DNA of 64,000 bases from Agromyces protaetiae (lineage in GTDB: Bacteria; Actinomycetota; Actinomycetes; Actinomycetales; Microbacteriaceae): assembly GCF_004135405.1 (NCBI RefSeq), contig NZ_CP035491.1, positions 496,001-560,000 of the forward strand. The letters are read 5' to 3'. The translations under genes were made by a program, and so were the position numbers. This document shows, one piece after another, positions 1,133-63,925 of the stretch (position 1 is the first letter of the stretch; each line of letters starts with the position of its first letter). Below the pieces are notes generated by a model. That model searched no databases and was not told the DNA's origin. It worked only from the letters and a program-made list of their open reading frames with translations.

Positions 1133-1215
1133 GGCCGTCCCCTCCGCCGAGACCGATCGGTTCCCGGACTCGCGCGAGCACGAGACATCCGAACCCCGTG
1201 TCGCGCAGTCTTCTC

Positions 1216-1572
1216 CTACTTCGGCGTCGCCGCGACCCCCTGCGCGTCGCCGTCGACGTCGGGTGCGTCGGTGTCGAGGTGCTCGGGCACGAGCTCGATG
1301 CCTCCTGTGGAGTTGGCCGAGCGCATGAGCTCTTCGACCCAGGGCCGGCTGAGCTCGGGACGCTGCGCCTCGTTGAAAACGAACCGCAGCGGGATCGCGG
1401 GGTGCAGCCACAGGGTGCTTCGCCCGAGCGGGTCACCCTCGGGGTGCACCCACGAGAGGGTGAAGCTCTCTCCGCGGCGGAGCTTGGTCGTGATGGCGAC
1501 CTTCAGATGCGCGAGTGCGCGATCCTCGATGCCGATCGGCGTGCCTGAATCTCCGTAGTAGAGGGTTCCCAT
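1216..1572 (-). CDS. DUF7882-type small conserved protein (paralogue)
   Basis: A 118-residue protein starting MGTLYYGDSGTPIGIEDRA, closely similar to the product of 538-861: both share the IDDR/IEDR turn, KLRRGESF, GR[ST]T[ML]WL and the following [VI]PL-x-FVF strand. It carries an extra acidic, proline-containing C-terminal tail. No enzymatic motif is visible. Two copies within 1 kb in opposite orientation suggest a local duplication or a functional pair. Role unknown. Confidence 0.85.
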   Translation of the reverse strand: MGTLYYGDSGTPIGIEDRALAHLKVAITTKLRRGESFTLSWVHPEGDPLGRSTLWLHPAIPLRFVFNEAQRPELSRPWVEELMRSANSTGGIELVPEHLDTDAPDVDGDAQGVAATPK

Positions 1573-1696
1573 CGTTGGAGACTACGCCGCGCGCATGGGC
1601 CGCGCGCGATCATCGACGGATGCCGGGCGGCTGTCAACCCCGTCGAGGGCGCTACCGGGCGGACCTACCGTGGGCGTGACCTCGAGAGGAGTGACG

Positions 1697-2578
1697 ATGA
1701 CCGGCCACCTCGTCGACCCGACCTCCAAGCACACGACGGACCGATTCGTGCCGCAGGAGCAGCGCCCGCCCGGGCTCACCGAGCCCATGCATCCGCAGCC
1801 CGACCACGGCGAGTACAGCTATCGCGGGAGCGGGCGCCTCGAGGGGCGCCGCGCGCTCGTCACGGGTGGAGACTCCGGCATCGGCCGGGCCGTCGCGATC
1901 GCGTTCGCGCGCGAGGGCGCCGACGTGGCGATCGGCTACCTGCCCGAAGAGGACGAGGATGCGCGCGAGACGGCACGCTGGGTCGACGACGCCGGGCGGA
2001 CGCCGGTGCTCGTGCCGGGCGACCTCCGCGACGAGGACTTCTGCCGCGAGCTCGTCGACCTCGCGCATGCCGGCCTCGGCGGCCTCGACCTGCTCGTGCT
2101 GAACGCCGCGCACCAGCGCGAGCGCGGCGGCATCGACGAGATTCCGACTGCGGACTTCGAGCGGGTGATGCGCGTGAACCTCTTCGCGGCGGTGTTCCTC
2201 GCTCGTGCGGCCGTGCCGCGGATGGACGCCGGCTCGTCGATCATCACGACGACCTCGATCCAGGGGTTCCACCCGTCGAGCGCACTCGTCGACTACGCCA
2301 TGACGAAGGCCGCGCTCGTCGCCTTCACGCGCGCGCTCGCCGAGGAACTCGGGCCGCGAGGCATCCGCGTCAACGCCGTCGCGCCGGGTCCGGTCTGGAC
2401 CCCGCTGATCCCCGCGACCGGCTGGCCCGACCATCTGCCCGAGTTCGGCAAGGACACCCCGCTCGGCCGCGCCGGGCAGCCCGCCGAGCTCGCGGGCGCC
2501 TACGTGTACCTCGCCTCGGAGGAGGCGTCGTACGTGTCGGGCGCGATCCTGCCCGTCACGGGCGGCAAGCCGCTCTGA
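1697..2578 (+). CDS. SDR family oxidoreductase (general-stress type)
   Basis: ATG at 1697 follows AGAGGAG with correct spacing; the frame is open further upstream but that part has no start signal. The 293-residue product has the N-terminal extension with MHPQPDHGEYSYRGSG typical of the YhxC/GSP39 branch of classical short-chain dehydrogenases. The cofactor motif TGGDSGIGRA is at about residues 54-63, NAA follows strand 4, and the catalytic pattern is Ser (TTSIQG), Tyr and Lys (DYAMTKAAL). The C-terminus ends in SGAILPVTGGKPL. It probably reduces or oxidises a carbonyl or alcohol with NAD(P)H in the cytosol; the substrate cannot be read from sequence. Confidence 0.9.
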   Translation: MTGHLVDPTSKHTTDRFVPQEQRPPGLTEPMHPQPDHGEYSYRGSGRLEGRRALVTGGDSGIGRAVAIAFAREGADVAIGYLPEEDEDARETARWVDDAGRTPVLVPGDLRDEDFCRELVDLAHAGLGGLDLLVLNAAHQRERGGIDEIPTADFERVMRVNLFAAVFLARAAVPRMDAGSSIITTTSIQGFHPSSALVDYAMTKAALVAFTRALAEELGPRGIRVNAVAPGPVWTPLIPATGWPDHLPEFGKDTPLGRAGQPAELAGAYVYLASEEASYVSGAILPVTGGKPL

Positions 2579-2897: not shown

Positions 2898-2924
2898 CGG
2901 CGTCGCCGCAGATCCGAGCGGCGG

Positions 2925-3983
2925 ATGCCTCGCCTCACACGCGTCGAGCCGTACACGTCGCCGGGGTGGACGAGGGTCCGCCGCGGCGGCGGCTTCTCGT
3001 ATGTCGGCCCGCACGGCGAACGCGCGAGCGCTCGTGATCGAGCCCGGTTCGCCGAGTTGGCGGTGCCTCCCGCGTGGAAGGACGTCTGGATCGCCGATGC
3101 CGCGAACGCGCATCTGCTCGCCGTCGGCGTCGACGCCGCAGGACGTCGCCAGTACCTCTACAACCCCATTTGGCGGGAGCGACAGGACATCGAGAAGTTC
3201 GATCGGATGGTGCTGCTCGCACGTGTCCTGCCGGAGGCGCGCCTGACCGCGGAGCGGGAACTCTCGGTCGGCCTCGCCGAACACGGGCTCGAAGAGCATC
3301 GAGTGCTCGCCGCGGCGTTCCGCACCCTCGACCTCGGAGCATTGCGCGTCGGGTCGGAGGAATCGCTCGCGGCTGCCCGCCACCGGGGTCTCACGACCCT
3401 GCTCGTGCGGAATGCGACGGTGGAGACGCGCGGGGCGGCGAGTGCCGACGCGACGGCCCACCCGCCCGTCGTGCGGTTCCGCTTCCGCGCGAAAGACGGG
3501 ATCGCGCAAGACCTCAGCGTCGGCGATGCGGCGCTCGCGGGGTTCGTCACGCTCGCGCGCGAGCGCGCCGCATCCGCCCGCCTCTACGCCTGGCGAGCCG
3601 AGCACACCCGTCGCCACCGGGCGCTCACGGCCGCCGAGGTCAACGACGACATCCGTCGCCGCACGGGCGGCGACTTCACCGCGAAGGACTTCCGCACGCT
3701 GCGGGGGACGATCGTCGCAGCCGAACGGCTCGCCGAGATCGGTGTCGAGTCATCGGCCCGGGCGCGCGCTGCGGCGATGCGCGACGCCGTGGTCGCGACC
3801 TCCGTCGCCCTCGGCAATACGCCCGCGATCGCGAAAGCGAGCTATGTCGATCCGCGCGTGTTCACCGCCTACGATCGCGGGGTCGTCCTCTCGCGCCGCG
3901 GCGCAGCAGAGCGCGCGCTCATCGCGCTCGTGGCGGCGGACGCGGAATCCGCGCCGGGAGTCGAAGCCGGGTCGGCGGCCTGA
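2925..3983 (+). CDS. DNA topoisomerase IB
   Basis: The 352-residue product has the N-terminal topo IB domain (WTRVRRGGGFSYVGP, VPPAWKDVWI) and the poxvirus/bacterial-type catalytic domain. Visible active-site elements are R in ALRVGSE, the RHRGLTTLL segment, K in FRAKDG, and the C-terminal SYVDPRV motif whose Tyr (about residue 307) is the likely nucleophile. It relaxes supercoils by transient 3'-phosphotyrosyl cleavage. The start ATG lies inside a copy of the GGATGYCTC motif and has no clear ribosome site. It ends 11 bases from the convergent ligD stop, and both stops sit in one hairpin. Confidence 0.93.
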   Translation: MPRLTRVEPYTSPGWTRVRRGGGFSYVGPHGERASARDRARFAELAVPPAWKDVWIADAANAHLLAVGVDAAGRRQYLYNPIWRERQDIEKFDRMVLLARVLPEARLTAERELSVGLAEHGLEEHRVLAAAFRTLDLGALRVGSEESLAAARHRGLTTLLVRNATVETRGAASADATAHPPVVRFRFRAKDGIAQDLSVGDAALAGFVTLARERAASARLYAWRAEHTRRHRALTAAEVNDDIRRRTGGDFTAKDFRTLRGTIVAAERLAEIGVESSARARAAAMRDAVVATSVALGNTPAIAKASYVDPRVFTAYDRGVVLSRRGAAERALIALVAADAESAPGVEAGSAA

Positions 3984-3997: not shown

Positions 3998-6459
3998 TCC
4001 CGCTCGCGCACGATCGAGGCGGCGTCGAGGTCGGGGCGGAGCCCCCGCCAGCGCGGATGCCTTGCCGACCCCGCCGTCGTCCAGCCCGAGAACTCGATCT
4101 CACCGACGAGTTCGGGGCGCACCCACACGGCGTCGGCCGCCTCGGCGGGCGGCACGGCGACGAACGGGGAGTCGCCCGCGTGCAGGCCGTCGAAGGTCGC
4201 GAGCAGGCGGTCGAGCTCGTGCTCGCCGAGCCCCGACCACACCCGTCCCGCATACTCGAGGCGGCCATCGGGGGTCGGCGTGCCGACGAGGAGCGACTTG
4301 ATGCGGCCCTCGCGCGTGCCGGTGCCCTTGCGGTAGCCGCCGATCAGTACCTCCTGCGTGCGCGTGAGCTTGAGCTTCACCCAGTCGTCACTCCGCACCC
4401 CCGGGCGGTACCGCGAGCCGCGTCGCTTCGCGACGAGCCCCTCGAGGCCGAGCGCACGGGCTTCGGCGAGCGCGGCCTCGACCACGCCCGGGTCGGCGCG
4501 CGTTTCGGAACCGGCTTCGGATGCCGCGAGCGCGGGCACTTCGACGGGCACCCCTTCGACGGGCCGGAACAGGCGCTCGAGCCGCGCCCGCCGCTCGACG
4601 TACGGCTCGTCGATCGTCGGCGTGCCCGCGACCTCGAGCACGTCGAAGAGCAGCAGGCGCACGGGCACGGATGCCGCGAGTTCGGCGATCTCGCGCGGAC
4701 GCGTGACGTTCATCCGCGGCTGCATGCGCCCGAAGTCGGGCCGTCCGTCGGCGTCGAGGGCGACGAGTTCGCCGTCGACGAGCGCGTCGGCGCGGAGCGC
4801 CCGGGCGAGCCCGGCGAGTTCGGGGTAGCGGGCGGTCTCGTCGCGGCCGCTGCGGCTCGTGAGGCGCACCGCTCCGCCGTCGGTGCGGGCGAGGATGCGG
4901 ATGCCGTCCCACTTCCACTCGAGCGCCCAGTCGCCGCGCGCGACGTCGACGGGTTTGCCCGGCACGGCGAGCATGGGGCGTTCGGAGATCTCAGCGGCCG
5001 CCGCCGCAGGCGCGTGCGCCGAGGCATCCGGCCGCTGCTCCTTCATGCGGTGCAGGAGCCACTGAGACTTCTGCCCCTCGCCCGACGTGCGGATGAGCGC
5101 GACGCGCACCCCGCGCCCGTCCGAGCCGCGCAGCGGCCCGCCCTCGCGCCCCTTGAGCGTTGCGATGATCTCGTCGTCTCGCCACTTCTCGGCCGTGTAG
5201 GTGCCCGTGTCCCAGACCGACATCTTCCCCGCGCCGTACTGCCCCTTCGGGATCTCGCCGTGGAACTCGAGGTATTCGAGCGGATGGTCCTCGGTCTGCA
5301 CCGCGAGCCGGTTGACGCCCGGGTCATCCGGAACGCCCTTCGGCACCGCCCAGCTGCGGAGCACCCCGTCGCGCTCGAGCCGCAGGTCGAAGTGGAGGCT
5401 GCGCGCGTGATGCTCGTCGACGACGAAGCGGAGCGCGCCGTCGGCGGGGGCGGCGCCGGCCTGCGCGACCGGCACGACCGGCACGGCCGCCGGCATCGGC
5501 TCGGGCGTCTTCGCCGGGTCGCGCATCGAGAGGTAGGTCGAGAGCGGGCCGGATGCCTCGGGGCGGGCACCGCCCAGCGCCGCAGCCGGATCGTTCCCCG
5601 CGGCGACGCGTTCGAGCACCTCCTGCCACTCGAACTGCGCGAGCCCCGGGTCATCCAATTCGTCCCACGTGCGCGGCGCCGCGACCGTCGGCCGCAACCG
5701 CCCCCGCAGCGAATACGGCGCGATCGTCGTCTTCGCGGCGCTGTTCTGGCTCCAGTCGATGAGCACCTTGCCCGTGCGGAGCTCCTTCTTCATGCTCGAC
5801 ACGACGAGCTTCGGGTGGTCGGCCTCGAGCGCGCGGGCCAGTTCATGCGCGACATCCGACACCTGCTGCGAGCTCTGTCGCCCGTCGAGGGGTGCGTAGA
5901 GGTGGATGCCCTTGCTGCCGCTCGTGACCGGGATCGGGTCGAGTCCGATGGGCGTCAGGATGTCGCGCACGAGCCGCGCGACCTCGGCGCACTCGGCGAG
6001 CCCGACCCCCTCGCCGGGGTCGAAGTCGAACACCATGCGGTCGGGGTTGCCCGGGGTTCCGTCGGGCGCGAAGCGCCACTGCGGCACGTGGATCTCGAGC
6101 GCGGCCTGCTGGGCGAGCCACACGAGGGCGGCGCGGGTGTCCGCGATGGGATAGGTCTTCGGCCCGTCGGAGTGCTCGATGATTCCGCGGCCCAGCCACT
6201 CGGGCGCATGGCCCGCGAGGTTCTTCTCGAAGAAGACCTGCCCCGGGGCATCCGCCGTGCCGACGCCGTGCACCCACCGCTTGCGCGTCACCGGACGCCC
6301 CGCGACGAGGGGAAGCATGACCGGGGCGATTTCTGCGTAGTACGAGACGACCTCGCCCTTCGTCATGCCCGTCGACGGATACATGACCTTGCCGAGGTTC
6401 GTGAGCGCGAGCGTGCGACCGTCGACCTCGACGGTCTGGCGCCCCTCCCCTGCGGCCAT
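3994..6459 (-). CDS. ligD: ATP-dependent DNA ligase LigD (Pol-PE-Lig)
   Basis: An 821-residue three-domain NHEJ enzyme. A primase-polymerase domain covers roughly residues 10-300 (LTNLGKVMYPSTGMTKG, RKRWVHGVG, FDFDPGEG with metal-binding Asp, SGSKGIHLYAPL). The 3'-phosphoesterase domain lies around 340-460 (VVDEHHARSLHFDLRL, AVPKG, GEIPKGQYGAG). The ATP-dependent ligase domain starts about 500 (EWKWDGIR with the adenylated Lys, DGELVALD, GLVAKRRGSRYRPG). Pol-PE-Lig is the mycobacterial order. ATG at 6459 is chosen because the family's N-terminus starts just after it. It is divergent from ku at 6686, so the two NHEJ partners share one promoter region. Confidence 0.96.
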   Translation of the reverse strand: MAAGEGRQTVEVDGRTLALTNLGKVMYPSTGMTKGEVVSYYAEIAPVMLPLVAGRPVTRKRWVHGVGTADAPGQVFFEKNLAGHAPEWLGRGIIEHSDGPKTYPIADTRAALVWLAQQAALEIHVPQWRFAPDGTPGNPDRMVFDFDPGEGVGLAECAEVARLVRDILTPIGLDPIPVTSGSKGIHLYAPLDGRQSSQQVSDVAHELARALEADHPKLVVSSMKKELRTGKVLIDWSQNSAAKTTIAPYSLRGRLRPTVAAPRTWDELDDPGLAQFEWQEVLERVAAGNDPAAALGGARPEASGPLSTYLSMRDPAKTPEPMPAAVPVVPVAQAGAAPADGALRFVVDEHHARSLHFDLRLERDGVLRSWAVPKGVPDDPGVNRLAVQTEDHPLEYLEFHGEIPKGQYGAGKMSVWDTGTYTAEKWRDDEIIATLKGREGGPLRGSDGRGVRVALIRTSGEGQKSQWLLHRMKEQRPDASAHAPAAAAAEISERPMLAVPGKPVDVARGDWALEWKWDGIRILARTDGGAVRLTSRSGRDETARYPELAGLARALRADALVDGELVALDADGRPDFGRMQPRMNVTRPREIAELAASVPVRLLLFDVLEVAGTPTIDEPYVERRARLERLFRPVEGVPVEVPALAASEAGSETRADPGVVEAALAEARALGLEGLVAKRRGSRYRPGVRSDDWVKLKLTRTQEVLIGGYRKGTGTREGRIKSLLVGTPTPDGRLEYAGRVWSGLGEHELDRLLATFDGLHAGDSPFVAVPPAEAADAVWVRPELVGEIEFSGWTTAGSARHPRWRGLRPDLDAASIVRERD

Positions 6460-6495
6460 GGCCCCATCCTGCCCGTCTCGGCCCCTCCTGCCCGC

Positions 6496-6596: not shown

Positions 6597-6685
6597 GAGG
6601 AGGGGGCTGGCGGGCTGCGGATGCCTCGGGGCGGGGCTGCGGGCAAGGGGTTCCCACGGGGCATCCGGGGGTGTGTACTGGGGGC

Positions 6686-7556: not shown

Positions 7557-7604
7557 AGCGGGGCGGATGCCTCGGGCTTCACGCCGCGAGCCATCCGCCC
7601 CGTT
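7557..7604. terminator. Bidirectional terminator between ku and lipoprotein gene
   Basis: CGGGGCGGATG (7559-7569) pairs perfectly with CATCCGCCCCG (7592-7602), extended by G-T and A-T pairs, with a 22-base loop. It sits between two convergent genes. Runs of A on the left and T on the right are short (AAA / TT), as expected for GC-rich actinobacterial terminators. One GGATGCCTC motif copy forms part of the left arm. Confidence 0.6.
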
Positions 7605-8060: not shown

Positions 8061-9292
8061 CTACGCGCGACCCCCCGCGCGCTTCGAGGCCTTGTCCTGC
8101 GCGGCCGCGGCGGACTCGGCCGCCATCGCCTGCTTGGTGTCGGCGAAGTCGCCGAGCGCCGGGCGGATCCACGCGAGCCGCGGATTCGAGTCGACGAGGA
8201 GCATGCGCACGAGCAGGGTGAGCGGGATCGCGAGGATCGCCCCGATCGGCCCGAGCACGACCGCCCAGAACAGCACCGAGAAGAACGTGAGCGTCTGGCT
8301 GAGGGCGACCGCGTTGCCGACGACGCGCGGCTGGATGACCGACTGGATGATGCCGTTGATGATGCCGTAGACGACGATGACGCCGATCACCGTCGGCCAT
8401 CCTCCCGAGAGCCCCCGAAGACGAGCGGCGGCACGATCGCGATGAAGTAGCCGATGTTGGGGATGAAGCTGCAGAGGAACGAGAGGATGCCCCAGAGCGG
8501 CGCCCCGGGAACCCCCATCACGAGCAGGGCGAGCCAGTTGACGAGCCCCTGGGCGGCGCCGAGCACGGTCGTCACGACCATGTACTTGCGCACCCCCGTC
8601 GTGAACTCGTGCACCGCCTCGACGAGGATCGGGCGACGAGCGCCGATCTCGCGGTTGAGGACGGGTGCGTAGACGGCGTCCATCGCCATGAGGATGAGCA
8701 TCGTGAGGAGCACGACGAACGCCGACGTGAGCCCGAGGGCGTTGCCCAGCACGCCGCCGACGAACTCGACGATCCGGCCGGGGTCGAACCCCGAGAAGAT
8801 GAGCTCGATCTGCTCAGGCCCGACACCGAAGCCCGCGAGCCACCCGGCGATCCCCTCCGCCCACGCCTGCAGTTCGGGCACGTAGGTCGGCAGCAGCGTC
8901 GCGAACTGCGCGAACGAGATGACGAGCGCGGCGATGAACCCGCCGAGGAGCAGCACGACGGCGACGATGACCGATCCCGTCGCGATCCCCCGCGGCACAC
9001 CCCGGCGTTCGAGCCCGACCCGCAGCGGGTGCACGCTGATCGTGAGCACGAGCGCGAGCAGGACGGGCGCGAGCACCGATCCGATCGCGGCGATCCCGAA
9101 CGACGCGAGCGCGGCACCGCCGAGGCCGATGAGGATGAACGCGGTGCGGTGGGGTGAGGGGTCTTCCGCGGCGAATGCGGCCGCGCCGTCGGCACCGGCG
9201 CCGGTGCCGACGAAGACACCGGATGCCTCCGAGCCGCGGCCGTCCGAGACATCCGCCCCGCCGTTGCGGTCCGTGCGTCTGCGCCACCACAT
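8061..9292 (-). CDS. AI-2E family transporter, single-base frameshift
   Basis: Two overlapping frames make one protein. Residues 1-301 (8387-9292) hold the N-terminal part with several membrane helices up to GYFIAIVPPLVF; the remainder (8061-8390) continues with TVIGVIVVYGIINGIIQS, QPRVVGNAVALSQTLTFFSV and the conserved LGPIGAILAIPLTLLV end. The full span is 1232 bases, one short of a multiple of three, and the break falls at the CCCCC run 8412-8416, where one extra base restores a GGWPTVIGV reading. The family (YdgG/PerM-like) exports small molecules or acts as an antiporter. Probably intact in the organism. Confidence 0.88.
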
Positions 9293-9889: not shown

Positions 9890-10138
9890 ATGGCGATGCC
9901 GAAGGGGCGACGAGACGGGCGGCCCGGGCTCCTCGCCGTCGCCGACCGGCTCTCCCGCGCGACCGGGGGCGAGCCCGAGACATCCGGCCGCTTCCCCGAC
10001 GTGCGCGAGGGTCGACCCGACGAGCGTCGACCCGACCTCGACCTCCTCGACGGGCTCGAACGCCTCGCGGCGCTCCGTGCCGCGGGCGCGCTCGACGACG
10101 ATGAGTACGCGGCGGCGAAGCGGCGCCTGCTCACGTGA
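9890..10138 (+). CDS. SHOCT-domain small protein
   Basis: An 82-residue protein. ATG at 9890 (or 9896) follows the DUF6325 stop by only a few bases, implying translational coupling. The C-terminal part (LDGLERLAALRAAGALDDDEYAAAKRRLL) is a clear SHOCT (short C-terminal) domain, an oligomerisation helix pair. The N-terminal part is basic and unstructured. Its last 8 bases overlap the end of the convergent LuxR gene. Confidence 0.75.
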   Translation: MAMPKGRRDGRPGLLAVADRLSRATGGEPETSGRFPDVREGRPDERRPDLDLLDGLERLAALRAAGALDDDEYAAAKRRLLT

Positions 10139-21343: not shown

Positions 21344-24323
<2,980 letters not shown>

Positions 24324-31295: not shown

Positions 31296-31321
31296 CACGA
31301 TGTCCTGAGACATCACAGTGC

Positions 31322-32796: not shown

Positions 32797-32831
32797 TCGG
32801 CTCCTTCTCGTCTGTCGGTCGCGTTCTCAGC

Positions 32832-36466: not shown

Positions 36467-36553
36467 GCGTGTCAGTCTAGCCGCGCGGCCTTTGAGGCCC
36501 GGATGCCGCGTCGGCATCGCCCTCGACCGGCCCGATGTCGTAGGTTGGCATCC

Positions 36554-38463: not shown

Positions 38464-38553
38464 ACGGCTCCCTCCGTCGGGTGGCGTCAGCCTAATCGGA
38501 GGGGGCGCTCCGAGGCATCCGGAATCGCGAGCTGTGGAAGGCCTACGGGTGCG

Positions 38554-40855: not shown

Positions 40856-40923
40856 GGCATCCGCCGCCGCGGATGTGACGAAGCGCCCGTGACGCGCGCG
40901 CCCGACGCTGCCAGACTGGGCGC

Positions 40924-55350: not shown

Positions 55351-56292
55351 TCACGCGACCTGCGGCAGCACCTCGCTCGCGAGGAACTCGAGCACGTCGA
55401 GGTCGTCGAAATCGAGCACCTGCAGGTAGAGCGTCTCGACACCGAGTTCGCGCAGCCCCGCGATGCGGTCGATCACCTGCTGGGCGGTGCCGCCGATGCC
55501 CTCGCGGGCGAGTTCCAGCGGGTCGCGGCCGATGCGCTCGGCGCGCGCCCGATACTCGGCGTCGGTCGCCCCGGCCGTCGTCGTGAGGGCGGCCGAGTAG
55601 ACGAGCGAGCCGGGGTCGCGGCCGATCGCCTCGGCGGCGGCGCGCACGCGCGCGAACTGCTCGGCGATGACGTGGTCGCTGCGGAACGGCACGTTGAACT
55701 CGTGCGCGAAGCGCGCGGCGAGGGCGGGCAGGCGCACGGCTCCGCCGCCGCCGAGGATCACGGGCACGGGCTGCTGCACGGGCTTGGGCAGCGCCGGCGA
55801 GTCGACGAGCGTGTAGTGCGTCCCGGGGTAGTCGAACGTCGAACCCGACGGCGTCGCCCACAGCCCGGTGAGGATCTCAAGCTGCTCCTCGAAGAGGTCG
55901 AAGCGCTTCTTCGGGAACGGGATGCCGTACGCGGCGTGCTCGGCCTCGAACCATCCGGCCCCGAACCCGAACTCGACACGCCCGCCGCTCATCTCGTCGA
56001 CCTGCGCGACCTGGATCGCGAGCATGCCCGGGTGGCGGAACGTCAGGCTCGTCACCAAGGTGCCGAGACGAATGGTGGATGTCTCGCGCGCGAGCGCGCC
56101 GAGGGTCACCCACGAGTCGGTCGGGCCGGGCAGCCCGTCGCTCGCCCCGGCCGGCCCCTCGGCGCCCATCGCGCGGATGTGGTCGCTGCGGAAGAACGCG
56201 TCGAATCCGAGACGTTCGGCGGTCAGCGCCATCGCCAGCTGCTGCCCGTAGGTCGCACCCTGCTGCGGCTCGGTGAACACGCGGAACTTCAT
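55351..56292 (-). CDS. LLM class flavin-dependent oxidoreductase (F420-type)
   Basis: ATG at 56292 follows AAGGGATCG. The 313-residue protein is a luciferase-like TIM barrel: MKFRVFTEPQQGATYGQQLAMAL, GFDAFFRSDHI, RETSTIRLGTLVTSLTFRHP, GRVEFGFGAGWFEAEHAAYGIPFP and VPVILGGGGAVRLPALAARFA. These are typical of actinobacterial F420-dependent members. It would use reduced F420 or FMN to reduce or oxidise an unknown substrate in the cytosol. Confidence 0.92.
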   Translation of the reverse strand: MKFRVFTEPQQGATYGQQLAMALTAERLGFDAFFRSDHIRAMGAEGPAGASDGLPGPTDSWVTLGALARETSTIRLGTLVTSLTFRHPGMLAIQVAQVDEMSGGRVEFGFGAGWFEAEHAAYGIPFPKKRFDLFEEQLEILTGLWATPSGSTFDYPGTHYTLVDSPALPKPVQQPVPVILGGGGAVRLPALAARFAHEFNVPFRSDHVIAEQFARVRAAAEAIGRDPGSLVYSAALTTTAGATDAEYRARAERIGRDPLELAREGIGGTAQQVIDRIAGLRELGVETLYLQVLDFDDLDVLEFLASEVLPQVA

Positions 56293-56350: not shown

Positions 56351-57721
56351 TCACCCCGCGAGCAGTCGCTCCGCGAACCAGTAGAGCCCGACCGCCGCGA
56401 CAGCGAGCTGGATCCACACCGGCACGAGCGTCAGCCGCTTGCGCACGAGCAGGAGGATCGGGAACGCGATCGCGATGAGCACGAGCTGCGTGAGCTCGAT
56501 GCCCACGTTGAAGACGAGGAGCGCGCCGAGCAGTCCCCACGAGAACGGCTCGTCGATGCCGAGCGCCCCCGCGAATCCGACCCCGTGCACAAGGCCGAAC
56601 GCGAACACGACGGCGACGCGGACCCAGTCGTCCCGCGAGAACCAGCGCGTCGCGGCGCTGTCGAGGGATGCCGGTGCCTTCGAGGGCGCCGGCGCCAGGG
56701 CGACGCGCTCGCGCAGCGCGAGTCCGCCGCCGGACGGCGCGCCGCCCGAGACATCCGGAGCCTCGACACCGTCGACTGGCGCGCCGACGCCGGCGTTCGC
56801 GACGCGACCGCGCCGCCACACCCACACGTTCCACAGCGCGACCGCCGCGATCGAGAACGCGATGATCGGCTCGACGATCGCGGGCGGAACGCTCACGATG
56901 CCGAGCGCCGCGAGCACGAACGTCAGCGAGTGCGCGACCGTGAACGCCGTCGCGACCAGCACGATGTCGCGCAAGCGCCGCGACCCCGCGATGAGAGCGA
57001 GCAGGAACAGCAGGTGGTCGGCGCCCGACAGCAAGTGCTCGGAGCCGAGCACGAGGAACTCGCCCATGCGCGAGCCCCAGTCCTGCGTCGTCGTGACCGT
57101 CGGGCTCGTGTCGGTGTCGAGGTTCGCAACGCCCGACCCTGAGCGCAGGTCGTACTCGACGATCGTCGTCGTCTTGCCGCCCGGCGCCGTGCCCGGGAAC
57201 AGCTCGGTGCCGATCCGGTACACGGGGGCCGCGGCGCCCACCTGATCGCGGCAGTCGCTGTCGATCACGAGGCGCGCGTGCGGCACGCCGTCGCGCAACG
57301 TGATCGCGTAGGGCTCTGCGAGCGCGTTCGGGCAGGCGGATGTCTCGGCCGCATCGGACTCGACCGAGACCGAGTAGCGCGGCAGCACGTAACCGAGCAC
57401 GGTGTCGGAGTACTGCTCGAGCACCGCGGTCGTGAGCTTCGACGGGTCGCGGCCCGACGACTGCACGTCGGCGTACGCGGCGGCCTCGAACTCCGCGTCG
57501 CCCATCGCGCGGGCGCCGTCGGTCGCGAGGAGCACGTACTCGATCTCGAGCACCGTGCGGACGAGACCCGGTTCGGGCTCGGTCACGTCCGCATAGACGG
57601 TCGCCGAGTAGCTGTGGGCGGCGGCCGGCGCAGCCGGCACGAGGAAGGCGAGGGCGGCGACCACGAGCAGGAGCGCGCGCACGAGGCGCGCGCTCCCGCC
57701 GCGGGTGGGATCAGTACGCAC
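56351..57721 (-). CDS. HupE/UreJ-type secreted and membrane protein
   Basis: GTG at 57721 overlaps the end of the metallophosphoesterase gene by 11 bases. The 456-residue product has a signal peptide (ALLLVVAALAFLVPAAPAAAHSY), an extracellular beta-rich domain with two cysteines (DAAETSACPNALA, DSDCRDQVGAA), and a C-terminal HupE/UreJ_2-type block of about seven helices (LGSEHLLSGADHLLFLLALIAG, AFTVAHSLTFVLAALG, FGLVHGVGFAGALGI). The His-containing helices resemble nickel/cobalt permease-related families. A metal role is likely but unproven. Confidence 0.87.
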   Translation of the reverse strand: MRTDPTRGGSARLVRALLLVVAALAFLVPAAPAAAHSYSATVYADVTEPEPGLVRTVLEIEYVLLATDGARAMGDAEFEAAAYADVQSSGRDPSKLTTAVLEQYSDTVLGYVLPRYSVSVESDAAETSACPNALAEPYAITLRDGVPHARLVIDSDCRDQVGAAAPVYRIGTELFPGTAPGGKTTTIVEYDLRSGSGVANLDTDTSPTVTTTQDWGSRMGEFLVLGSEHLLSGADHLLFLLALIAGSRRLRDIVLVATAFTVAHSLTFVLAALGIVSVPPAIVEPIIAFSIAAVALWNVWVWRRGRVANAGVGAPVDGVEAPDVSGGAPSGGGLALRERVALAPAPSKAPASLDSAATRWFSRDDWVRVAVVFAFGLVHGVGFAGALGIDEPFSWGLLGALLVFNVGIELTQLVLIAIAFPILLLVRKRLTLVPVWIQLAVAAVGLYWFAERLLAG

Positions 57722-60700
57722 CGAGGTCGGTCCAGCCGTTGTAGGGGCTCGCGCCCGGTTCCTGGTTGCGGGTCCACCAGCCGGCCTTGTAGAGCCGGCC
57801 CTCGTGGGCGACGATCTCGCCGCCCGTGTAGATCCACGAGTCCGTCCAGGCCCGCACGACGCCCTTCGACGTCGCGACCTCGACGCCGCGCTCCGACCAG
57901 GCGCCGTTCGGTCCGCTCTTGGCGGGCGTCACGCCCTGCGTCCACCACTGGGCCACGTAGACGCGTCCGTCGTGCAGCACGGTCTCTCCGCCGAGGTAGA
58001 TCTGGGCGGCCCGCCACTCGGGCAGGGCGCTCACCTTGACCGTGGGCGAGACGGCGCTGCCGGGTGCGCTGGTCGGTGAGCTCGCGGTCACGGTGACCGC
58101 GAGGTCGGCGCCGTTGAGCGCGCCTCCGACACGGAGTTCGGGGCCGGTCGCGCCGGTGATGGGCACGCCGTTCGCCGTCCACCGGTAGGCGAACGTCAGC
58201 CCGGAGACATCCCACCCCCGGGCTGGGCGACGAGGAGACCGCCGACCTCGGCCGTGCCGTCGATGCGCGGTGCGACCGTCGACACGGGTGCAGGGTCGGT
58301 CGCCGTCACCGCGAACTCGGCCTTCGCCGTGTTGCCCGCCGCGTCGGTCGCCGTGTAGGCGAGCGTGTAGGCGCCGGCGACGGGGGGCACGATCGTTCCG
58401 GGCTCGAGCGGCACGTTCTCGCCGATCGGACCCGACACCTTGATCGCGACCGAAACGGTTCCCGAGTCGTCGCCCGCGATGCCGCGCGGCACCGAGTAGT
58501 CGGCGCCGACGATCGCGTTCGACGCGGGGGCCGGGTCGACGACGAGAAGGGGTGCCGTCGTATCGAGCGACTTCAGCGCGCGCGCTGCGAGTCGTGCGAT
58601 CGGCTTCGCGGTGAGCGGCTCGCTGTAGATCTTCGCCGTCGCGATCGAGCCTTCGTAGGGGTACTCGACCGTGCCCGACGACGAGATGTCGCCGCCGACC
58701 ACGAAGCTGCGCGACGACCCCGTCGGGTTCTGCACCTTGCCGCCGCCGGATGCCGTCGCCGATCCGGCGAGGCGTCCGTCGACGAACACCCGCAGGGCGC
58801 CCGACTGCGCGTCGTATGTCGCGACGACGTGCGTCCACATGCCGGCGGTCACGGCGTTCTCGGCGCGGGCGACGACGTACGTGCCGCCGACGCGCACCCA
58901 CAGTTCCGGCGAGACCCTGCCCGACTGCGTGCCCGGGAGCATCTCGAGGCCCTGGCCTGCGTTCTGGGTGTTCGAGATCATGTCGCGCTCGGTCGTGATC
59001 GCAGGCGCCTTGAAGACCGACTCGATCGCGAAGCCGTCCTCGGTCTTCGCATAGTCGGCGTCCGACCAGGCGATGCGAGACCCCTGCGCGGAGTTGCCCG
59101 TGAACGAGGCCGCCTCCCCGCCGAGCGCGGGGTCGACCGCGACCGGGGCGTTGCCCTTGGTGATCGAGTGCGCTCGCGGCGAGCGGTCGACGGGTGCGCC
59201 GCCGACGTAGTCGAGGTCGAGCAGGTCGGCGACGGGCAGCGGTTCGAGGAGGTCGGCCAGCGCGTCGGACCCGTTGACGGCGGTCACCGTGAAGGCGGCT
59301 TGCGCCTGGCGGGACGCGGCGTCGGTGACGACGTACGTCACCGTGTGGTCGCCCGGCAGGGTCGGCGTGAACTCGAACCGGCCGTCGGCCGTGCGGGTCA
59401 CGTCGAGCACGCCGCCTGCCGGGTCGGTGACCTCGAGGGCCGCCTTCACCGAACCCGAGTTGTCGACCGCCTGCGGAGCGGGGGCGATGAACCGGTGGCC
59501 GACGACCGCCGAGGCGCTCGGCGCGGGCACGACGCGAACCTGCGGCGGCGTCGCGTCGAGGAGTCGCAGTTCGCGGTTGGCGACGCGGTACACGTTCTTG
59601 TCGGACAGCGGCGCGCTGTAGAGCTCGGCGCCCGCGATCCTGCCGTTGAACGTCGAGTCGTCGAGCGTCCCGCTCGGGTTCGCGTCGCCGCCGATCGTCA
59701 TGTACCTGGCTGCAGCGGTCGTCGGCTTGACGTTGAAGGAGACGCTCTTCTGCTCGACCTTCTTGATGCCGTTGACGTAGAGGCGGGCGTCGGTGCCGTC
59801 GTACCAGCCGGTCACGTGGTACCACGTGCCGTAGTCGAGCAGCGCCTTCGGCTGCGGGCTCGCGTACCAGAACTGCAGTTCGTAGCTCGTCGACGACGAC
59901 GTGCGCACGGCTTCGAGGCCGATGCCGGCGCCCTGCATGCCGCCGAAGACGTCGACGTAGCCGCCGACGGCCTTGTCGATCGAATCGAGCTTGAACGTCG
60001 CATCGACCGTGAAGCCGTCTTGCAGGCCGGCGTAGTCGGCGTCGCTCCACGTGCCCGTGCGGAACGCGGTCGCCGCGCCCTGCGTGCCGACGGCGACCTG
60101 GCCGCCGAGGGCGGCCTCGTCGACGATGCTCGCCGCGCTGCCCGCCGTGAGCGCCCACGCCTTGGGCGACGCGTCGACCGCCTTGCCACCGACGAAGCCG
60201 ACGTCGAGGAGGTCGGGAGTCGGGACGTTCTCGCGCAGGTCGTCGAACGTGAGCGCGTCGGGGTCGAACGGCGGGTCGACGGGCGTCGTCGAGCCCGACG
60301 TCGTGAAGCGGGCGGTGAGCGCCGCGCCCTCCTTGCCCCACGCGTTGATCGGAGTGACGCGCACCTCGTACTCGCGCGCCGCGCGAAGGTTCCACACCTC
60401 GTGGTTGCGCGTCGTCGGCATGGGGAGGTTGTAGAAGCCCGACCACTGGAGGAACGTGTTGACAGTCTGCCCGCTCGCAACGTCGACCGTCGTGTAGCGG
60501 TACTTGTGGACGATGTCCTGCACGGGGTTGGGCGCCGGCACGGCCTGCGGGAACGCGACCATCGCCTTGTCGTCGCCGATGCCGTTGACGGTCAGGGCCG
60601 ATCCGGCGGGCCACACGGGTGCCGAGCTGAGGCTTGCGCGGTGGGTGTTGTTGAGCGGAAAGCGCTCGTCGTAGCTCTTGGTGGTGTCGATCGAATCGGC

Positions 60701-62110
60701 GACGTCCCACGACCAGGTCTGGTCGATCCACTGGTCGGCGAGGAGGTCGTAGTTCTTGATCGTGACCTTCGAGCCGGTGATCTCGACGATCGCCGTCTGG
60801 CGGTTGTCGCCGGCGTCGTCGGGCGTGGTGTCGTTCGACCGGCTCGTCGGGCTCGTGTTGACGACGCCCGATTCGAACTCGTAGTACGCGAGGGGCGGCG
60901 CGTTGACGGTCGTGAAGCCCTTGCCCGACTTGGTGCCGCTCCGGCCTTCCTGGCCCTGCCACACCGAGGTCGGGATGTTCTGGGGCGTGTGGATGTGCCC
61001 GCTCCAGACGACGGCCTGCGGGAAGTCGTCGAACACCGACTGCAGGGTGTTGCCGCAGCCGCTCGACAAGCCCGTGCCGTACCACTCGTTCGAGACGTAG
61101 TGGGTGCACTGGAGGGGGTGATGGACGAGCACGATGACGGGCTTCGCAGGGTCTTCGGCGGTGTCGGCCGCGAGCCGCTGCTGGAGCCACGAGGCGGCGT
61201 ACGCGTAGTTGCCCGAGTTCGCCGTCGAGGGCTTGCCGGTCGTGGGGTCGAGCGTCCCGGCGCCAGGCGAGACGGTGATGAAGTGATAGCCGTCGATCGT
61301 GTAGTCGGCGTTGGGCTTCTGGCCGCCGGTGGCCTGCGTGAACAGGTCGTACGACGAGATGGCGGTCACGTCGTGGTTGCCGAGGGACGCGACGAGGCGG
61401 ATGCCCAGGCCGGCCTTCGATTCGATCGTGCTCTGCAAGCCCGCGTATTCGGCGGCCGTCGCGTTGTTCGTGAGGTCTCCCACGAAGAGCGCGGTCGAGA
61501 CGTTCTCGGCCTTCCAGAAGTCGAACGCCTCGGCGAGTTCGGGCCAGTTGTCGTGGATGTCGCCGATGGCGGCGAAGCGGATGTCGGGTTCGCCCGCGGC
61601 GGGCGCTGCAGCCGCCTGCGCGGCGGCTTGGGGAGTGGCGGATGCCTCGTCGCCGGCCGTCTGCTGCGTCGAGGCGCCTGCCGCCCCGGCGGAGACCGCG
61701 ACGACCCACGTCTGCTCGACGATCTCACCGGTCGCATCGGTCGCGGTGAGGGCGACGGTGTAGTCGCCTGCGAGGGCTGGGGTGAACCGGTAGACGCCGT
61801 CGGCGCCGGCGCTCACGGCCGCGATGACGGCGTCGGGGGCGGTCACGGTGACGACGAGGTCGCCGCCGAGGTCGGCCGGGGGCCGGAACTCGACGATCTC
61901 GCCGACTGCCGCGGTCGTCGGAACGGCGGGAGCAGCCGAAGCGGCGGCCGAGCGGGCCGCGGGTGCATCGGCGAGCGGGGTCGCGAACGCGGGAGCCGAG
62001 ACGCCCGCGAGGACGACGGTCGCCGCCGTGACGGCGGCCGCGAACATCGACGAGCGACGGAACGGATGGGGGTGGGGAGCGTGAGCCTGCGGAGCGTCGG
62101 GCTTCGACAC
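57711..62110 (-). CDS. Large secreted metallophosphoesterase with LamG-like and CBM5/12-like modules; single-base frameshift
   Basis: GTG at 62110 follows AAGGAAG. The signal is FAAAVTAATVVLAGVSAPAFA. Next come an Ig-like segment, a calcineurin-type domain about residues 175-400 (IRFAAIGDIHDNW, ALFVGDLTNN, ASLGNHDVT, VVWSGHIHTP), a fibronectin-like piece, two LamG/concanavalin modules, two Ig/cadherin-like modules and two CBM5/12-like repeats (IYLGGETVLHDGRVYVAQWW, YTGGEIVAHEGRLYKAGWW). The 4400-base span lacks one base: the break is at CCCCC 58215-58219, where an added base gives QPGGWDVSGLTFAYRW. It is about 1466 residues, an extracellular phosphoesterase probably held to a polysaccharide. 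Confidence 0.9.
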
Positions 62111-62289
62111 GGTTCTTCCTTCGTAGGGGTCCGGGAACGGAACGGTGTCACGAAATCGGCCGCACATGTCGCGAGGATGAACACCAATGGGCGCGACGAC
62201 GGCGGAATCCCCGGATCGCCGGATTCGCTCAGCCCGCTGTGCACACCGGGCAGGAAAGGCCCCGCGGCGGGCCGTTCGCCGAGGCGCCC

Positions 62290-63060
62290 TCAGCTCGCCT
62301 CGGGCAGGTCGGCCGCGCCCGCGGCCTGGGCCTCGAAGGAGATCGTGTGCGGCACGTACCGGTCCTCGCCGCATTCGACCGGTCGGCCGTTGGCGGCGTA
62401 GGTCTCGCGCCGCACCTGGAGCATCGGGCTCGATCGCCGGATGCCGAGCAGGCGGGCGTCGTCGCTCGACGCCGCGACGGCCTCGATGCGGTGGTTGCCG
62501 TGCGTGATGAGGATGCCGGCGTCGGCGAGCAGTCGTGTCGTCGAGCGAATGTCGTCGGGCATGTCCTCGACGTGTCGCACGACCCACGGCGCCCACGTCG
62601 ACCGCTCGATCATGACGTCCCGTCCCTCGAGGGTGCGCACGCGGACGGTGTGGAGCACCTCGTCGCTCGTGCGGATGCCGAGGAGCCGCGCCTCACGGGC
62701 GGTCGCGAGCCGCGTGGCGCGCTCGACGATGCGTCCGCCGGACTCCCGACCGCGCCCGTCCGCCCACTGCGTGAACGACCGCATACGATCGAATCCCTGC
62801 GTTTGCGCCGACTGCACGAACCAGCCGGTGCCCGGACGCGACTCGACGAGGCCTTGCCGGGCGAGGGCGGCGAGCGCCGTGCGCACGGCGCTGCGCGACG
62901 ACCCCTGGCGCGCGGCGAGTTCGAGCTCGCTCGGCAGTCGGGTACCGGCGGGCAGGTCGCCCGACGCGATCCTCGCGCGCAGGTCGCCGACGATGTCGGG
63001 AGCGCCGACACGTGCGACCGCGGGGTCAGCTCCGCGCCCGCTCGATCTCGTACGAGACAT
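62290..63060 (-). CDS. GntR family regulator with UTRA domain
   Basis: The 256-residue protein has an N-terminal GntR winged helix (DIVGDLRARIASGDLPAGTRLPSELELAARQGSSRSAVRTALAAL, about 22-66) and a UTRA ligand domain of the HutC type (MIERSTWAPWVV, ITHGNHRIEAVAASSDDARLL, VRRETYAANGRPVE). The start ATG lies inside a GAGACATCC motif copy and within the 3' end of the methyltransferase gene (35-base overlap). It probably represses the metallophosphoesterase gene 179 bases downstream or its own operon; the ligand is unknown. Confidence 0.9.
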   Translation of the reverse strand: MSRTRSSGRGADPAVARVGAPDIVGDLRARIASGDLPAGTRLPSELELAARQGSSRSAVRTALAALARQGLVESRPGTGWFVQSAQTQGFDRMRSFTQWADGRGRESGGRIVERATRLATAREARLLGIRTSDEVLHTVRVRTLEGRDVMIERSTWAPWVVRHVEDMPDDIRSTTRLLADAGILITHGNHRIEAVAASSDDARLLGIRRSSPMLQVRRETYAANGRPVECGEDRYVPHTISFEAQAAGAADLPEAS

Positions 63061-63925
63061 CCGCGACCTCCTCGAACCGCGCCCGCATGACCTGGATCGC
63101 CTCGGGGTTCTCGTCGACGAGCACGAAGCGGCGGCCGAGGGCCTCCGCGACCGCGCCCGTCGTGCCCGACCCGGCGAAGAAGTCGAGCACCCAGTCGCCC
63201 TCGCGCGTCGACGCCTGCACGATCCGCCGCAGCACGCCCTCGGGCTTCTGCGTCGGATACCCCGTCTTCTCGCGCCCGGTCGGCGAGACGATCGTGTGCC
63301 ACCACACGTCGGTCGGGAGCTTCCCGGCAGCCGCCTTCTCGGGCGTCACGAGCCCCGGCGCCATGTACGGCTCGCGGTCGACCGCGGTCGAGTCGAACCA
63401 GTACGCGTCGGGATTCTTCACGTAGACGAGGATCGTGTCGTGCTTCGTCGGCCACTTGCGCTTCGACTTCGCACCGTAGTCGTAGGCCCAGATGAGCTCG
63501 TTCAAGAAGCACTCGCGCCCGAACAGCGCGTCGAGCAGCACCTTCGCGTAGTGCGCCTCGCGGTAGTCAAGGTGGAGGTAGAGGGTTCCGTCGTCGGCGA
63601 GGAGCCGCCACGCCTCGACGAGCCGCGGCTCGAGGAACCCCCAGTAGTCGTCGAAGCGGTCGTCGTAGCGGCGCAGGTCGCCGCGGATGCGCGCGTAGCG
63701 CTGGCCCCCGAACCCGGTGATGGCGACGGATGTCTCGGGCTGCACATCGTCCGCGGCATCCGCCTCTTCCGCGATCCGCACATGCCGCGTGACGTGACGC
63801 GTCTGCGCGCGCCCCGTGTTGAACGGCGGGTCGAGGTAGACGAGGGTGAACGCGCCGTCGGGCAGGGTCGGGAGCACATCGAGGTTGTCGGCCTGGATGA
63901 TGCGGTTCGGCCCCGTGAACGTCAC
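63026..63925 (-). CDS. Site-specific DNA methyltransferase (beta class)
   Basis: GTG at 63925 begins VTFTGPNRIIQADNLDVLPTLP. Motif IV DPPF is at 32-35 (LVYLDPPFNTG); a target-recognition region follows in the middle (RIRGDLRRYDDRFDDYWGFLEPR, YDYGAKSKRKWPTKHDTILVY), and the AdoMet motif FAGSGTTGAVAEALGRRFVLVDENPEA comes last. That order is the beta class, making N6-adenine or N4-cytosine. No restriction enzyme is nearby, so it is an orphan or regulatory methylase. It overlaps the GntR start. Confidence 0.92.
   Translation of the reverse strand: MTFTGPNRIIQADNLDVLPTLPDGAFTLVYLDPPFNTGRAQTRHVTRHVRIAEEADAADDVQPETSVAITGFGGQRYARIRGDLRRYDDRFDDYWGFLEPRLVEAWRLLADDGTLYLHLDYREAHYAKVLLDALFGRECFLNELIWAYDYGAKSKRKWPTKHDTILVYVKNPDAYWFDSTAVDREPYMAPGLVTPEKAAAGKLPTDVWWHTIVSPTGREKTGYPTQKPEGVLRRIVQASTREGDWVLDFFAGSGTTGAVAEALGRRFVLVDENPEAIQVMRARFEEVADVSYEIERARS

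What the first reader, a model, noticed from the sequence alone, without database searches (positions are those of the whole stretch)
1182..63736. A 9-mer, GAGRCATCC / GGATGYCTC, is scattered about 50 times through 64 kb
By hand count GAGGCATCC or GAGACATCC occurs about 26 times on the plus strand and its reverse complement about 25 times (e.g. 5021, 9246, 16644, 16662, 25243, 38384, 38512, 51148, 51160, 63054). With base composition near 70% GC, roughly one is expected. Copies occur in all three reading frames ([21 protein letters not shown]), on both strands without bias, and between genes (6619, 7565, 38512), so it is a DNA-level signal. It forces codons that are otherwise rare here (GCA, ACA, TCC, GAT). 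Both variants equal a CpG-to-CpA change of GAGRCGTCC, so methylation-driven deamination is one explanation; a chromosome-organisation, uptake or methylation motif is another.
Basis: seen in the sequence. Interest (0 to 1): 0.75.

Follow-up and report, generated by a model that had tools for sequence, protein, structure and literature searches.

The report
Self-DNA uptake tag in Agromyces
A short DNA word is repeated about once every 1,400 bases through the genome of a soil bacterium, and its relatives use related versions of it, which looks like a password for recognising and taking up DNA of their own kind, something known so far only from two families of Gram-negative bacteria.

Summary
The window holds exactly 51 copies (26 forward, 25 reverse; about 1.6 expected) and the complete genome (Agromyces, Microbacteriaceae) 2,699; the reversed word occurs 8 times. 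The real motif is wider, CGNGNCATCCG, best CGAGRCATCCG. It is a DNA-level signal: both strands, all reading frames, non-coding DNA, no replication-strand bias. Rare motif codons are kept between species far more often than the same codons elsewhere. Deamination of GRCGTCC is not supported.

The motif is a family trait: of 149 genomes of the order, only Microbacteriaceae are enriched, 9 of 10. Species and genera use dialects around CATCC; some with little CATCC excess use a sister core, CCTCC. At shared sites the dialect base has switched in place (few sites). Some inverted pairs form terminator-like hairpins.

This matches the anatomy of DUS/USS uptake sequences. Natural transformation is published for two family members. 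I judge it a DNA-uptake sequence with dialects (0.65), as far as my searches show the first outside Neisseriaceae and Pasteurellaceae.

The parts
1182..1190 (+). motif GAGACATCC
2358..2366 (+). motif GAGGCATCC
2923..2931 (-). motif GAGGCATCC
5021..5029 (+). motif GAGGCATCC
5551..5559 (-). motif GAGGCATCC
6619..6627 (-). motif GAGGCATCC (inside a predicted gene)
7565..7573 (-). motif GAGGCATCC, non-coding, left arm of hairpin 7559-7602
9221..9229 (-). motif GAGGCATCC, inverted pair with 9246
9246..9254 (+). motif GAGACATCC
9977..9985 (+). motif GAGACATCC, non-coding
11355..11363 (-). motif GAGGCATCC
14826..14834 (-). motif GAGGCATCC
15327..15335 (-). motif GAGGCATCC
16644..16652 (+). motif GAGGCATCC, direct pair with 16662
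16662..16670 (+). motif GAGACATCC
17129..17137 (-). motif GAGGCATCC
19812..19820 (-). motif GAGGCATCC
21836..21844 (+). motif GAGGCATCC
25243..25251 (+). motif GAGGCATCC
26485..26493 (+). motif GAGGCATCC
27314..27322 (+). motif GAGACATCC
29196..29204 (-). motif GAGACATCC
30174..30182 (-). motif GAGACATCC
30344..30352 (+). motif GAGGCATCC
34264..34272 (+). motif GAGGCATCC; 2 of 6 aligned states in relatives are GCGGCATCC
35736..35744 (+). motif GAGACATCC in the seryl-tRNA synthetase gene; 1 of 33 aligned states in relatives is the same
36580..36588 (-). motif GAGACATCC in the seryl-tRNA synthetase gene; of 22 aligned states in relatives 7 are GCGGCATCC and 2 GCGACATCC
37577..37585 (-). motif GAGGCATCC
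38167..38175 (-). motif GAGGCATCC
38384..38392 (+). motif GAGGCATCC
38512..38520 (+). motif GAGGCATCC, non-coding
39497..39505 (+). motif GAGGCATCC; 22 of 32 aligned states in relatives are GCGGCATCC (dialect switch in place)
40007..40015 (+). motif GAGGCATCC; 12 of 32 aligned states in relatives are the same
40854..40862 (+). motif GAGGCATCC
41010..41018 (-). motif GAGGCATCC; of 36 aligned states in relatives 14 are GAGRCATCC and 2 GCGGCATCC
43108..43116 (-). motif GAGGCATCC
48647..48655 (+). motif GAGGCATCC
48839..48847 (-). motif GAGGCATCC
50367..50375 (+). motif GAGACATCC
51148..51156 (-). motif GAGACATCC, direct pair with 51160
51160..51168 (-). motif GAGGCATCC
51212..51220 (+). motif GAGGCATCC
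53330..53338 (-). motif GAGACATCC, left arm of hairpin 53324-53379
53365..53373 (+). motif GAGACATCC, right arm of hairpin 53324-53379
56077..56085 (-). motif GAGACATCC
56748..56756 (+). motif GAGACATCC
57338..57346 (-). motif GAGACATCC
58204..58212 (+). motif GAGACATCC
61640..61648 (-). motif GAGGCATCC
63054..63062 (+). motif GAGACATCC
63728..63736 (-). motif GAGACATCC
7559..7602 (.). inverted pair (a GAGGCATCC and a variant GAGCCATCC) forming a terminator-like hairpin, non-coding, 81 bp from a predicted gene end; predicted -35.3 kcal/mol as RNA
53324..53379 (.). inverted pair of motif copies forming a hairpin, predicted -32.8 kcal/mol as RNA; inside a predicted gene, so not a terminator

Best explanation
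The motif CGNGNCATCCG (in this species mostly CGAGRCATCCG) is a DNA-uptake sequence. During natural transformation a surface or cell-wall-side DNA receptor prefers DNA that carries it; the DNA then passes through ComEA and ComEC and recombines into the chromosome. Because fragments carrying the word are taken up more often, chance copies spread and are kept by biased recombination, so each lineage fills its genome with the dialect its own receptor prefers. Shown here: abundance, motif shape, DNA-level nature, conservation of motif codons, family restriction, dialects, in-place dialect switching at a few sites, some hairpin use, lack of replication-strand bias, presence of comEA- and comEC-type genes. 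Inferred: that uptake is the process, and that one receptor reads a common C[A/C]TCC core plus dialect bases. The receptor is unknown; a Tad-pilus component or ComEA is my guess, since a PilB-type pilus ATPase is missing from some motif-rich genomes.
For: 2,699 copies against 8 for the reversed word; CGAGGCATCCG 158 vs 2.7 expected, with changes in CATCC and in the two strict Gs near background. Of 149 genomes of the order, CGRCATCCG reaches 215-876 per Mb in 9 of 10 Microbacteriaceae genomes, 103 in the tenth, and at most about 146 per Mb in the 139 genomes of 19 other families (from the counts). Dialects with a constant core: GCGGCATCC 61 vs 2.8 (G008), GGCATCCAC 34 vs 1.1 (G017), CGTCATCC 44 vs 6.1 (G005), GCGACATCC 22 vs 1.8 (G002). 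Sister core CCTCC: CGCGCCTCCT 41 vs 1.3 in five Frigoribacterium loci and G098, with a similar strict substitution profile; 112 copies of CGCGCCTCC lie 33 with, 38 against and 41 outside genes. Same-codon retention inside the motif: GAT 0.61 vs 0.21, GCA 0.46 vs 0.10, CAT 0.76 vs 0.30, TCC 0.62 vs 0.37 for the same codons outside it; overall ratio 1.30-1.39. At shared G.CATCC sites the base at -3 is A here and C in C-dialect relatives in 34 comparisons, the reverse in 0; control 5-mers 7 vs 6. Outward inverted pairs of GNGNCATCC 21 vs 7.8 expected; of the 9 strongest hairpins 6 are non-coding and 15-81 bp from a predicted gene 3' end. No strand bias, 182 vs 165. Matches to ComEC (PF03772) and to the ComEA-type domain PF12836 in 80 of 80 family genomes. 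Natural transformation published for two Microbacteriaceae (PMC11577799, passages); comEA/EC and tad genes needed in the actinobacterium Micrococcus luteus (PMC8467076, passages).
Against: No uptake or transformation experiment with this motif exists to my knowledge. The competence genes tested do not discriminate: they occur in all 46 genomes that I picked as motif-rich and all 34 picked as poor in GRCATCCG, and at least 3 of the 34 (G155, G098, G172), with a weak fourth (G118), later showed another dialect, so the contrast was also blunt. A PilB-type ATPase match (E below 1e-130, present in the own genome) is missing from motif-rich genomes such as G004 and G120, so the pilus of the known systems is not a constant companion. 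Stretches of four small-genome family members (G073, G076, G068, G122) show no clear motif, although the two published transformable species belong to small-genome clades. The excess of outward pairs shrinks to 27 vs 16.9 with the looser core G.CATCC, and one control core (ACCTC) also shows 9 vs 4.3. A conservation test with permuted 5-mers did not single out CATCC, and some codons (GCG, GCC, GGC and others) are kept less often inside the motif than outside. In five phage-portal regions the core is 35 vs 23 expected (controls 110 vs 46.6), lower but not clean. The 34:0 dialect result comes from few sites in one 11-kb region. Matches to relatives in that region were 70-86% identical, so gain and loss could not be followed over short times.
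Confidence: 0.65

Rival explanations
1. A methylation- or repair-driven word, as proposed for HIP1 of cyanobacteria: an orphan DNA methyltransferase reads the word and a linked mismatch-repair process creates and keeps it.
For: HIP1 is also abundant, clade-wide and has alternates that follow methyltransferase specificities (PMC4390886, abstract and outline). Dialects would follow enzyme specificities.
Against: The word is not palindromic, unlike HIP sequences. One-mismatch states at orthologous positions are of many kinds, not one repairable mismatch (C to G, T to G, A to G, T to C and others). Inverted hairpin pairs are not predicted in particular. Methyltransferases of this genome were not searched, so the rival is not excluded.
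Confidence: 0.13
2. A chromosome-maintenance signal, such as a Chi-like recombination hotspot, a segregation or a nucleoid-protein site, kept by selection.
For: Spread over all 21 sampled stretches; weak fall with distance from dnaA (rho -0.35, p 0.12); Chi sequences also differ between species (recalled).
Against: No orientation bias to replication, 182 vs 165; spacing close to random (squared CV 0.97); overlapping and hairpin copies; sampled genomes of one genus differ in dialect, which a selected site present in thousands of copies would hardly do.
Confidence: 0.15
3. CpG to CpA decay of GAGRCGTCC by deamination of methylated cytosine.
Against: The precursor is at its expected count and about 26 times rarer than the product (9 vs 235); CGTCC is 711 of 5,205 one-mismatch states; the rare motif codons are conserved.
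Confidence: 0.01
4. Codon-pair or amino-acid preference (E-A-S, E-T-S, D-A-S).
For: Two coding phases hold 163 of 241 coding copies.
Against: 184 of 347 copies are non-coding or in the other phases, against about 12 expected in all; both strands equal, 119 vs 122; amino acids at the motif are less conserved than elsewhere, 0.66 vs 0.75 in pairs under 82% identity.
Confidence: 0.01

Closest known systems
DNA uptake sequences (DUS) of Neisseriaceae, read by the minor pilin ComP
   Same: Thousands of copies per genome, in and between genes; dialects inside one family around a short constant core; inverted pairs linked to terminators; some genera of the family without it (PMC3630211, abstract and passages).
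   Different: Different word; a high-G+C Gram-positive family; no ComP-like reader known; a PilB-type pilus is not constant; function not tested; inverted pairs are a minority here.
Uptake signal sequences (USS) of Pasteurellaceae
   Same: A 9-base word in hundreds to several thousand copies, with dialects (PMC5031613, passages).
   Different: Unrelated sequence; Gram-negative hosts. [quoted passage not shown]
HIP1 and alternate HIPs of cyanobacteria
   Same: Abundant clade-wide word with alternates (PMC4390886, abstract).
   Different: HIPs are palindromes tied to methyltransferases; this word is not a palindrome; methyltransferases were not searched here.
Chi sites and KOPS
   Same: Abundant non-palindromic words (recalled).
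   Different: Those are oriented to replication (recalled); this one is not.

Membership tests
DNA uptake sequence (DUS/USS kind) | Short non-palindromic word in hundreds to thousands of copies on both strands | tested here: met
   2,699 copies, 1,328 + 1,371
DNA uptake sequence (DUS/USS kind) | Copies inside and between genes, not explained by one reading frame | tested here: met
   241 coding, 106 non-coding of 347, all six phases
DNA uptake sequence (DUS/USS kind) | Dialects within a family around a constant core | tested here: met
   the core itself is C[A/C]TCC if the CCTCC words are counted in
DNA uptake sequence (DUS/USS kind) | Inverted pairs forming terminator-like hairpins | tested here: met
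   outward pairs 21 vs 7.8 expected (27 vs 16.9 with the looser core); 6 of the 9 strongest hairpins non-coding near gene ends, 18 of all 30 outward pairs coding; termination itself not tested
DNA uptake sequence (DUS/USS kind) | Competence machinery present in carriers | tested here: met
   PF03772 and PF12836 matches in 80 of 80, but also in motif-poor genomes; PF03772 in 39 of 41 genus genomes, the two misses being assemblies of 840 and 810 contigs
DNA uptake sequence (DUS/USS kind) | Lower in recently acquired DNA | tested here: inconclusive
   five phage-portal regions: 35 vs 23 expected, controls 110 vs 46.6
DNA uptake sequence (DUS/USS kind) | Word raises DNA uptake or transformation | not testable with these tools
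   needs a transformation assay
DNA uptake sequence (DUS/USS kind) | Sequence-specific receptor | not tested
   no candidate reader was identified
HIP1-like word | Palindrome | tested here: not met
   motif CGNGNCATCCG
HIP1-like word | Cognate methyltransferase in carriers | not tested
Chi/KOPS-like oriented word | Orientation bias to replication | tested here: not met
   182 vs 165 of 347 sampled copies, p = 0.39, dnaA at 848 kb

The most novel reading that the evidence does not exclude
Microbacteriaceae have evolved, independently of Neisseriaceae and Pasteurellaceae, a self-DNA uptake code, the first in Gram-positive bacteria. The code has a common core C[A/C]TCC and genus- and species-level dialects that drift and even switch a core base, probably read by something other than the type-IVa minor pilin of the known systems, and it has shaped genetic exchange across a large family of soil, plant and water bacteria.
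Probability: 0.5. Interest if true: 0.93.

Novelty: new variant of a known kind. Interest (0 to 1): 0.85.

Why it matters
Sequence-tagged DNA uptake is described from two Gram-negative families only (PMC12616744, passages; PMC5031613, passages). A third, convergent case in Gram-positive Actinobacteria would show that such codes evolve repeatedly, would give a family with many dialects in which receptor-word coevolution can be followed, and would suggest how to make these hard-to-engineer soil and water bacteria genetically tractable: put the right word on the donor DNA.

Tried and rejected
Deamination of GRCGTCC: rejected on counts. Codon-pair preference as full explanation: rejected. Replication-oriented word: rejected. 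Repeat element: rejected, since no sequence beyond about 11 bases is shared. GTA or phage packaging: not favoured, since 36 of 41 Agromyces genomes, the own one included, have no PF04860 portal match. Competence genes as a discriminating test: failed, both kinds of genome have them. Type-IVa pilus as the needed partner: not supported. Permuted 5-mers as a conservation control: CATCC ranks 6th, 6th and 2nd of 20 in the three identity bins; I think a few conserved amino-acid sites dominate this control and replaced it by the codon-matched test; alone would not have shown special conservation. Phage regions as foreign DNA: weak.

Literature: nine searches of the held open-licence library: 314 papers hold GAGACATCC, 20 listed, none about this family; none; 20 of 916 listed; 5; 25 of 210; 1, a Clavibacter review in which the word occurs once, in a probe sequence; 8 of 9; 15 of 27; 1. 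In these listings I saw no report of the word as a genomic motif in Microbacteriaceae. Subscription papers and preprints are not held.

De novo search in 13 genomes poor in GRCATCCG: a related dialect clearly in G155, G172 and G098 (the last two of one genus), weakly in G118; none that I could recognise in eight (G079, G096, G131, G113, G136, G077, G108, G114; G136 has a faint GCGCATCC, 14 vs 3.6); G067 has AGGATCCG, which I could not interpret.


Full report
What was checked. The window holds 51 exact copies of GAGRCATCC/GGATGYCTC (15 + 11 forward, 17 + 8 reverse) where an order-2 Markov model of the same DNA expects 1.6. The window is bases 496,001-560,000 of a 3,683,091-bp one-contig genome that holds 1,328 + 1,371 copies; the word read backwards occurs 4 + 4 times. 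The best hits of the window's seryl-tRNA synthetase place it in Agromyces, family Microbacteriaceae (A. mediolanus 85%, A. humi 84% identity).

The motif. Substitution tables show a wider word, CGNGNCATCCG, best CGAGRCATCCG. In 464 kb of the genome CGAGGCATCCG occurs 158 times (2.7 expected) and CGAGACATCCG 77 times (0.9 expected). Positions 3 and 5 accept every base with some excess (A and R best); changes in CATCC and in the Gs at positions 2 and 4 fall to near background; the outermost C and G are softer. All 21 stretches carry 3.5-12 copies of GAGRCATCC per 10 kb.

A DNA-level signal. Of 347 copies, 106 are non-coding (about 70 would follow from the 20% of the DNA that my crude caller leaves non-coding) and 241 coding; 119 read with the gene and 122 against it; all six phases occur, two of them favoured (79 and 84). 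Spacing is close to random (squared CV 0.97, mean 1,210 bp). dnaA lies at 848 kb; 182 copies are in the leading and 165 in the lagging orientation, p = 0.39. Density is somewhat uneven between stretches (chi-square p = 0.045) and falls weakly with distance from dnaA (rho -0.35, p 0.12).

It is maintained. In five genes aligned by codon over 37 Agromyces genomes, and only where the amino acid is the same in both genomes, codons whose third base lies in a G.CATCC core are on the whole kept more often than the same codons elsewhere: in pairs under 82% identity GAT 0.61 vs 0.21, GCA 0.46 vs 0.10, CAT 0.76 vs 0.30, TCC 0.62 vs 0.37; overall ratio 1.30-1.39 in the three identity bins. Not every codon follows: GCG, GCC, GGC, CCG, GTG, CTG and GTC are kept less often inside the motif in that bin. 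Amino acids under the motif are less conserved than elsewhere, 0.66 vs 0.75 in that bin. A cruder test with permuted 5-mers did not single out CATCC (6th, 6th and 2nd of 20). At orthologous positions where a relative differs by one base, the states are mixed: C to G at the first base 1,356, T to G 860, A to G 711 and others of 5,205. Deamination of a CG precursor is therefore not the main source; the precursor is also at its expected count (5 vs 5.1 and 4 vs 2.7).

A family property with dialects. GAGRCATCC is high in the genus (36 relatives: 151-1,734 copies) and low in 23 genomes of other families of the order (8-61). The core word GRCATCCG was counted in 199 Microbacteriaceae genomes of 85 genera: 26 to 5,043 copies. 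CGRCATCCG in 149 genomes of the order reaches 215-876 per Mb in 9 of 10 Microbacteriaceae genomes and 103 in the tenth; the 139 genomes of 19 other families stay at or below about 146 per Mb (computed from the counts and rounded sizes). De novo counts show dialects with a constant CATCC: GCGGCATCC (G008), GGCATCCAC (G017), CGTCATCC and CGGCATCC (G005), GCGACATCC (G002), GAGGCATCC and GGGGCATCC (G004), CGGCATCCG in other genera. Of the 80 named loci I printed 48: G.CATCC is 2.3-4.5 times expectation in the 12 Agromyces loci, raised about 2-5 times in Cryobacterium, Humibacter, Glaciibacter and Herbiconiux and 1.5-2.2 times in five Microbacterium loci; it is not or hardly raised in Frigoribacterium, Frondihabitans, Leucobacter, Plantibacter and four Leifsonia.

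A sister core. Several of those exceptions carry a related word with C instead of A in the core: CGCGCCTCCT in five Frigoribacterium loci and G098 (41 vs 1.3), and CGGCCTCCG in the Leifsonia aquatica group (36 vs 10.5, a weaker enrichment). With G172 added, 112 copies of CGCGCCTCC lie 33 with, 38 against and 41 outside genes, so it is not simply a ribosome-binding site. GCGCATCC, one base away from that word, is the dialect of G155 (40 vs 3.6), Schumannella and one unnamed strain. Of 13 motif-poor genomes sampled de novo, three show a clear related dialect, one a weak one, eight none that I could recognise, and one an unclear word.

Dialect change in place. Comparing G000 with 23 genomes whose local preference is C at -3, shared G.CATCC sites read A here and C there in 34 comparisons and C here and A there in 0, against 7 and 6 for control 5-mers. 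These come from few sites; for example window 39497 is GCGGCATCC in 22 of 32 aligned states and 36580 in 7 of 22.

Hairpins. With the pattern GNGNCATCC, outward inverted pairs 12-40 bases apart number 21 and inward ones 7 (7.8 expected for each); with the looser G.CATCC they are 27 and 9 (16.9 expected). Five control cores give outward pairs 17 vs 16.0, 7 vs 4.9, 3 vs 2.4, 1 vs 1.4 and 9 vs 4.3. Of 30 outward pairs of G.CATCC up to 40 bases apart, 12 are non-coding; the 9 strongest hairpins (-30 kcal/mol or below) include 6 non-coding ones, each 15-81 bp from the 3' end of a predicted gene, window 7565 among them, and 3 in predicted genes, window 53330 among them. Direct pairs are also in excess, 39 vs 15.6, partly as small repeats.

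Mechanism. The anatomy matches uptake sequences: Neisseriaceae DUS have dialects around a constant CTG core, thousands of copies per genome, inverted pairs linked to terminators, and relatives without any (PMC3630211, abstract and passages). The translocation genes are present: a ComEA-type match next to ComEC at 2.84 Mb, and matches of each family in 80 of 80 family genomes; ComEC in 39 of 41 genus genomes, the two misses being very fragmented assemblies. Two members of small-genome clades of the family are naturally transformable (PMC11577799, passages), and Micrococcus luteus, another actinobacterium, needs comEA/EC and tad genes (PMC8467076, passages). But the genes are as common in the 34 genomes that I picked as motif-poor, so they do not test the link; the PilB/PilT-type pair (own genome at 1.488 Mb) is absent from some motif-rich genomes; and stretches of four small genomes show no clear motif. 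Around phage portal genes in five Agromyces genomes, G.CATCC in 20-kb stretches is 141 vs 70.6 expected, in ten control stretches 360 vs 137.7; in the central 7 kb it is 35 vs 23 against 110 vs 46.6; the two lowest centres are L221 (foreign G+C) at 4 vs 4.0 and L224 at 4 vs 5.2.

Verdict. My reading is a DNA-uptake sequence with dialects in a Gram-positive family, by convergence, at 0.65. A 2025 paper states that only two Gram-negative families are known to discriminate DNA this way (PMC12616744, passages), and my searches of the held library showed no report of this motif.

Noticed in passing
L138-L139 (G114, 40 kb) and genome counts of G114, G183: One genus (g73) is low in CATCC (21 vs 41 expected in 40 kb of G114; GRCATCCG 55 and 62 copies per genome, below the reversed control), as if the word were avoided, for example because of a GGATG-cutting enzyme (guess).
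   Followed up: partly
L228-L229 (G067): AGGATCCG/CGGATCCT (19 vs 1.4) and CAGGATCC (16 vs 0.9) are enriched in a genome without the CATCC motif; unclear whether this is a further dialect or a restriction-modification effect.
   Followed up: no
L204-L206 (G108): TCTCGATAC, GCGTATCGA, CGAGTAGCC and similar 9-mers occur 10-14 times against under 1 expected in 60 kb, probably a repeat element.
   Followed up: no
L208/L215 (G023), L209/L218 (G033), L207/L212 (G017): Phage portal genes in stretches with host-like G+C; in L215 also terminase, capsid/protease and tail matches. In G023 and G033 they lie 27-30 kb from the region that matches this window; possibly domesticated prophages.
   Followed up: partly
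L091:8624-8642, L091:11369-11387, L098:18466-18511, window 51136-51160: Runs of several motif copies in direct repeat, as if the word had been locally multiplied.
   Followed up: partly
window 31320-31409 and 32830-32915: Two tRNA-Ser genes (gct and tga) on either side of a LytR-type gene, about 3.8 and 2.3 kb downstream of the seryl-tRNA synthetase gene (35201-37174, minus strand).
   Followed up: no
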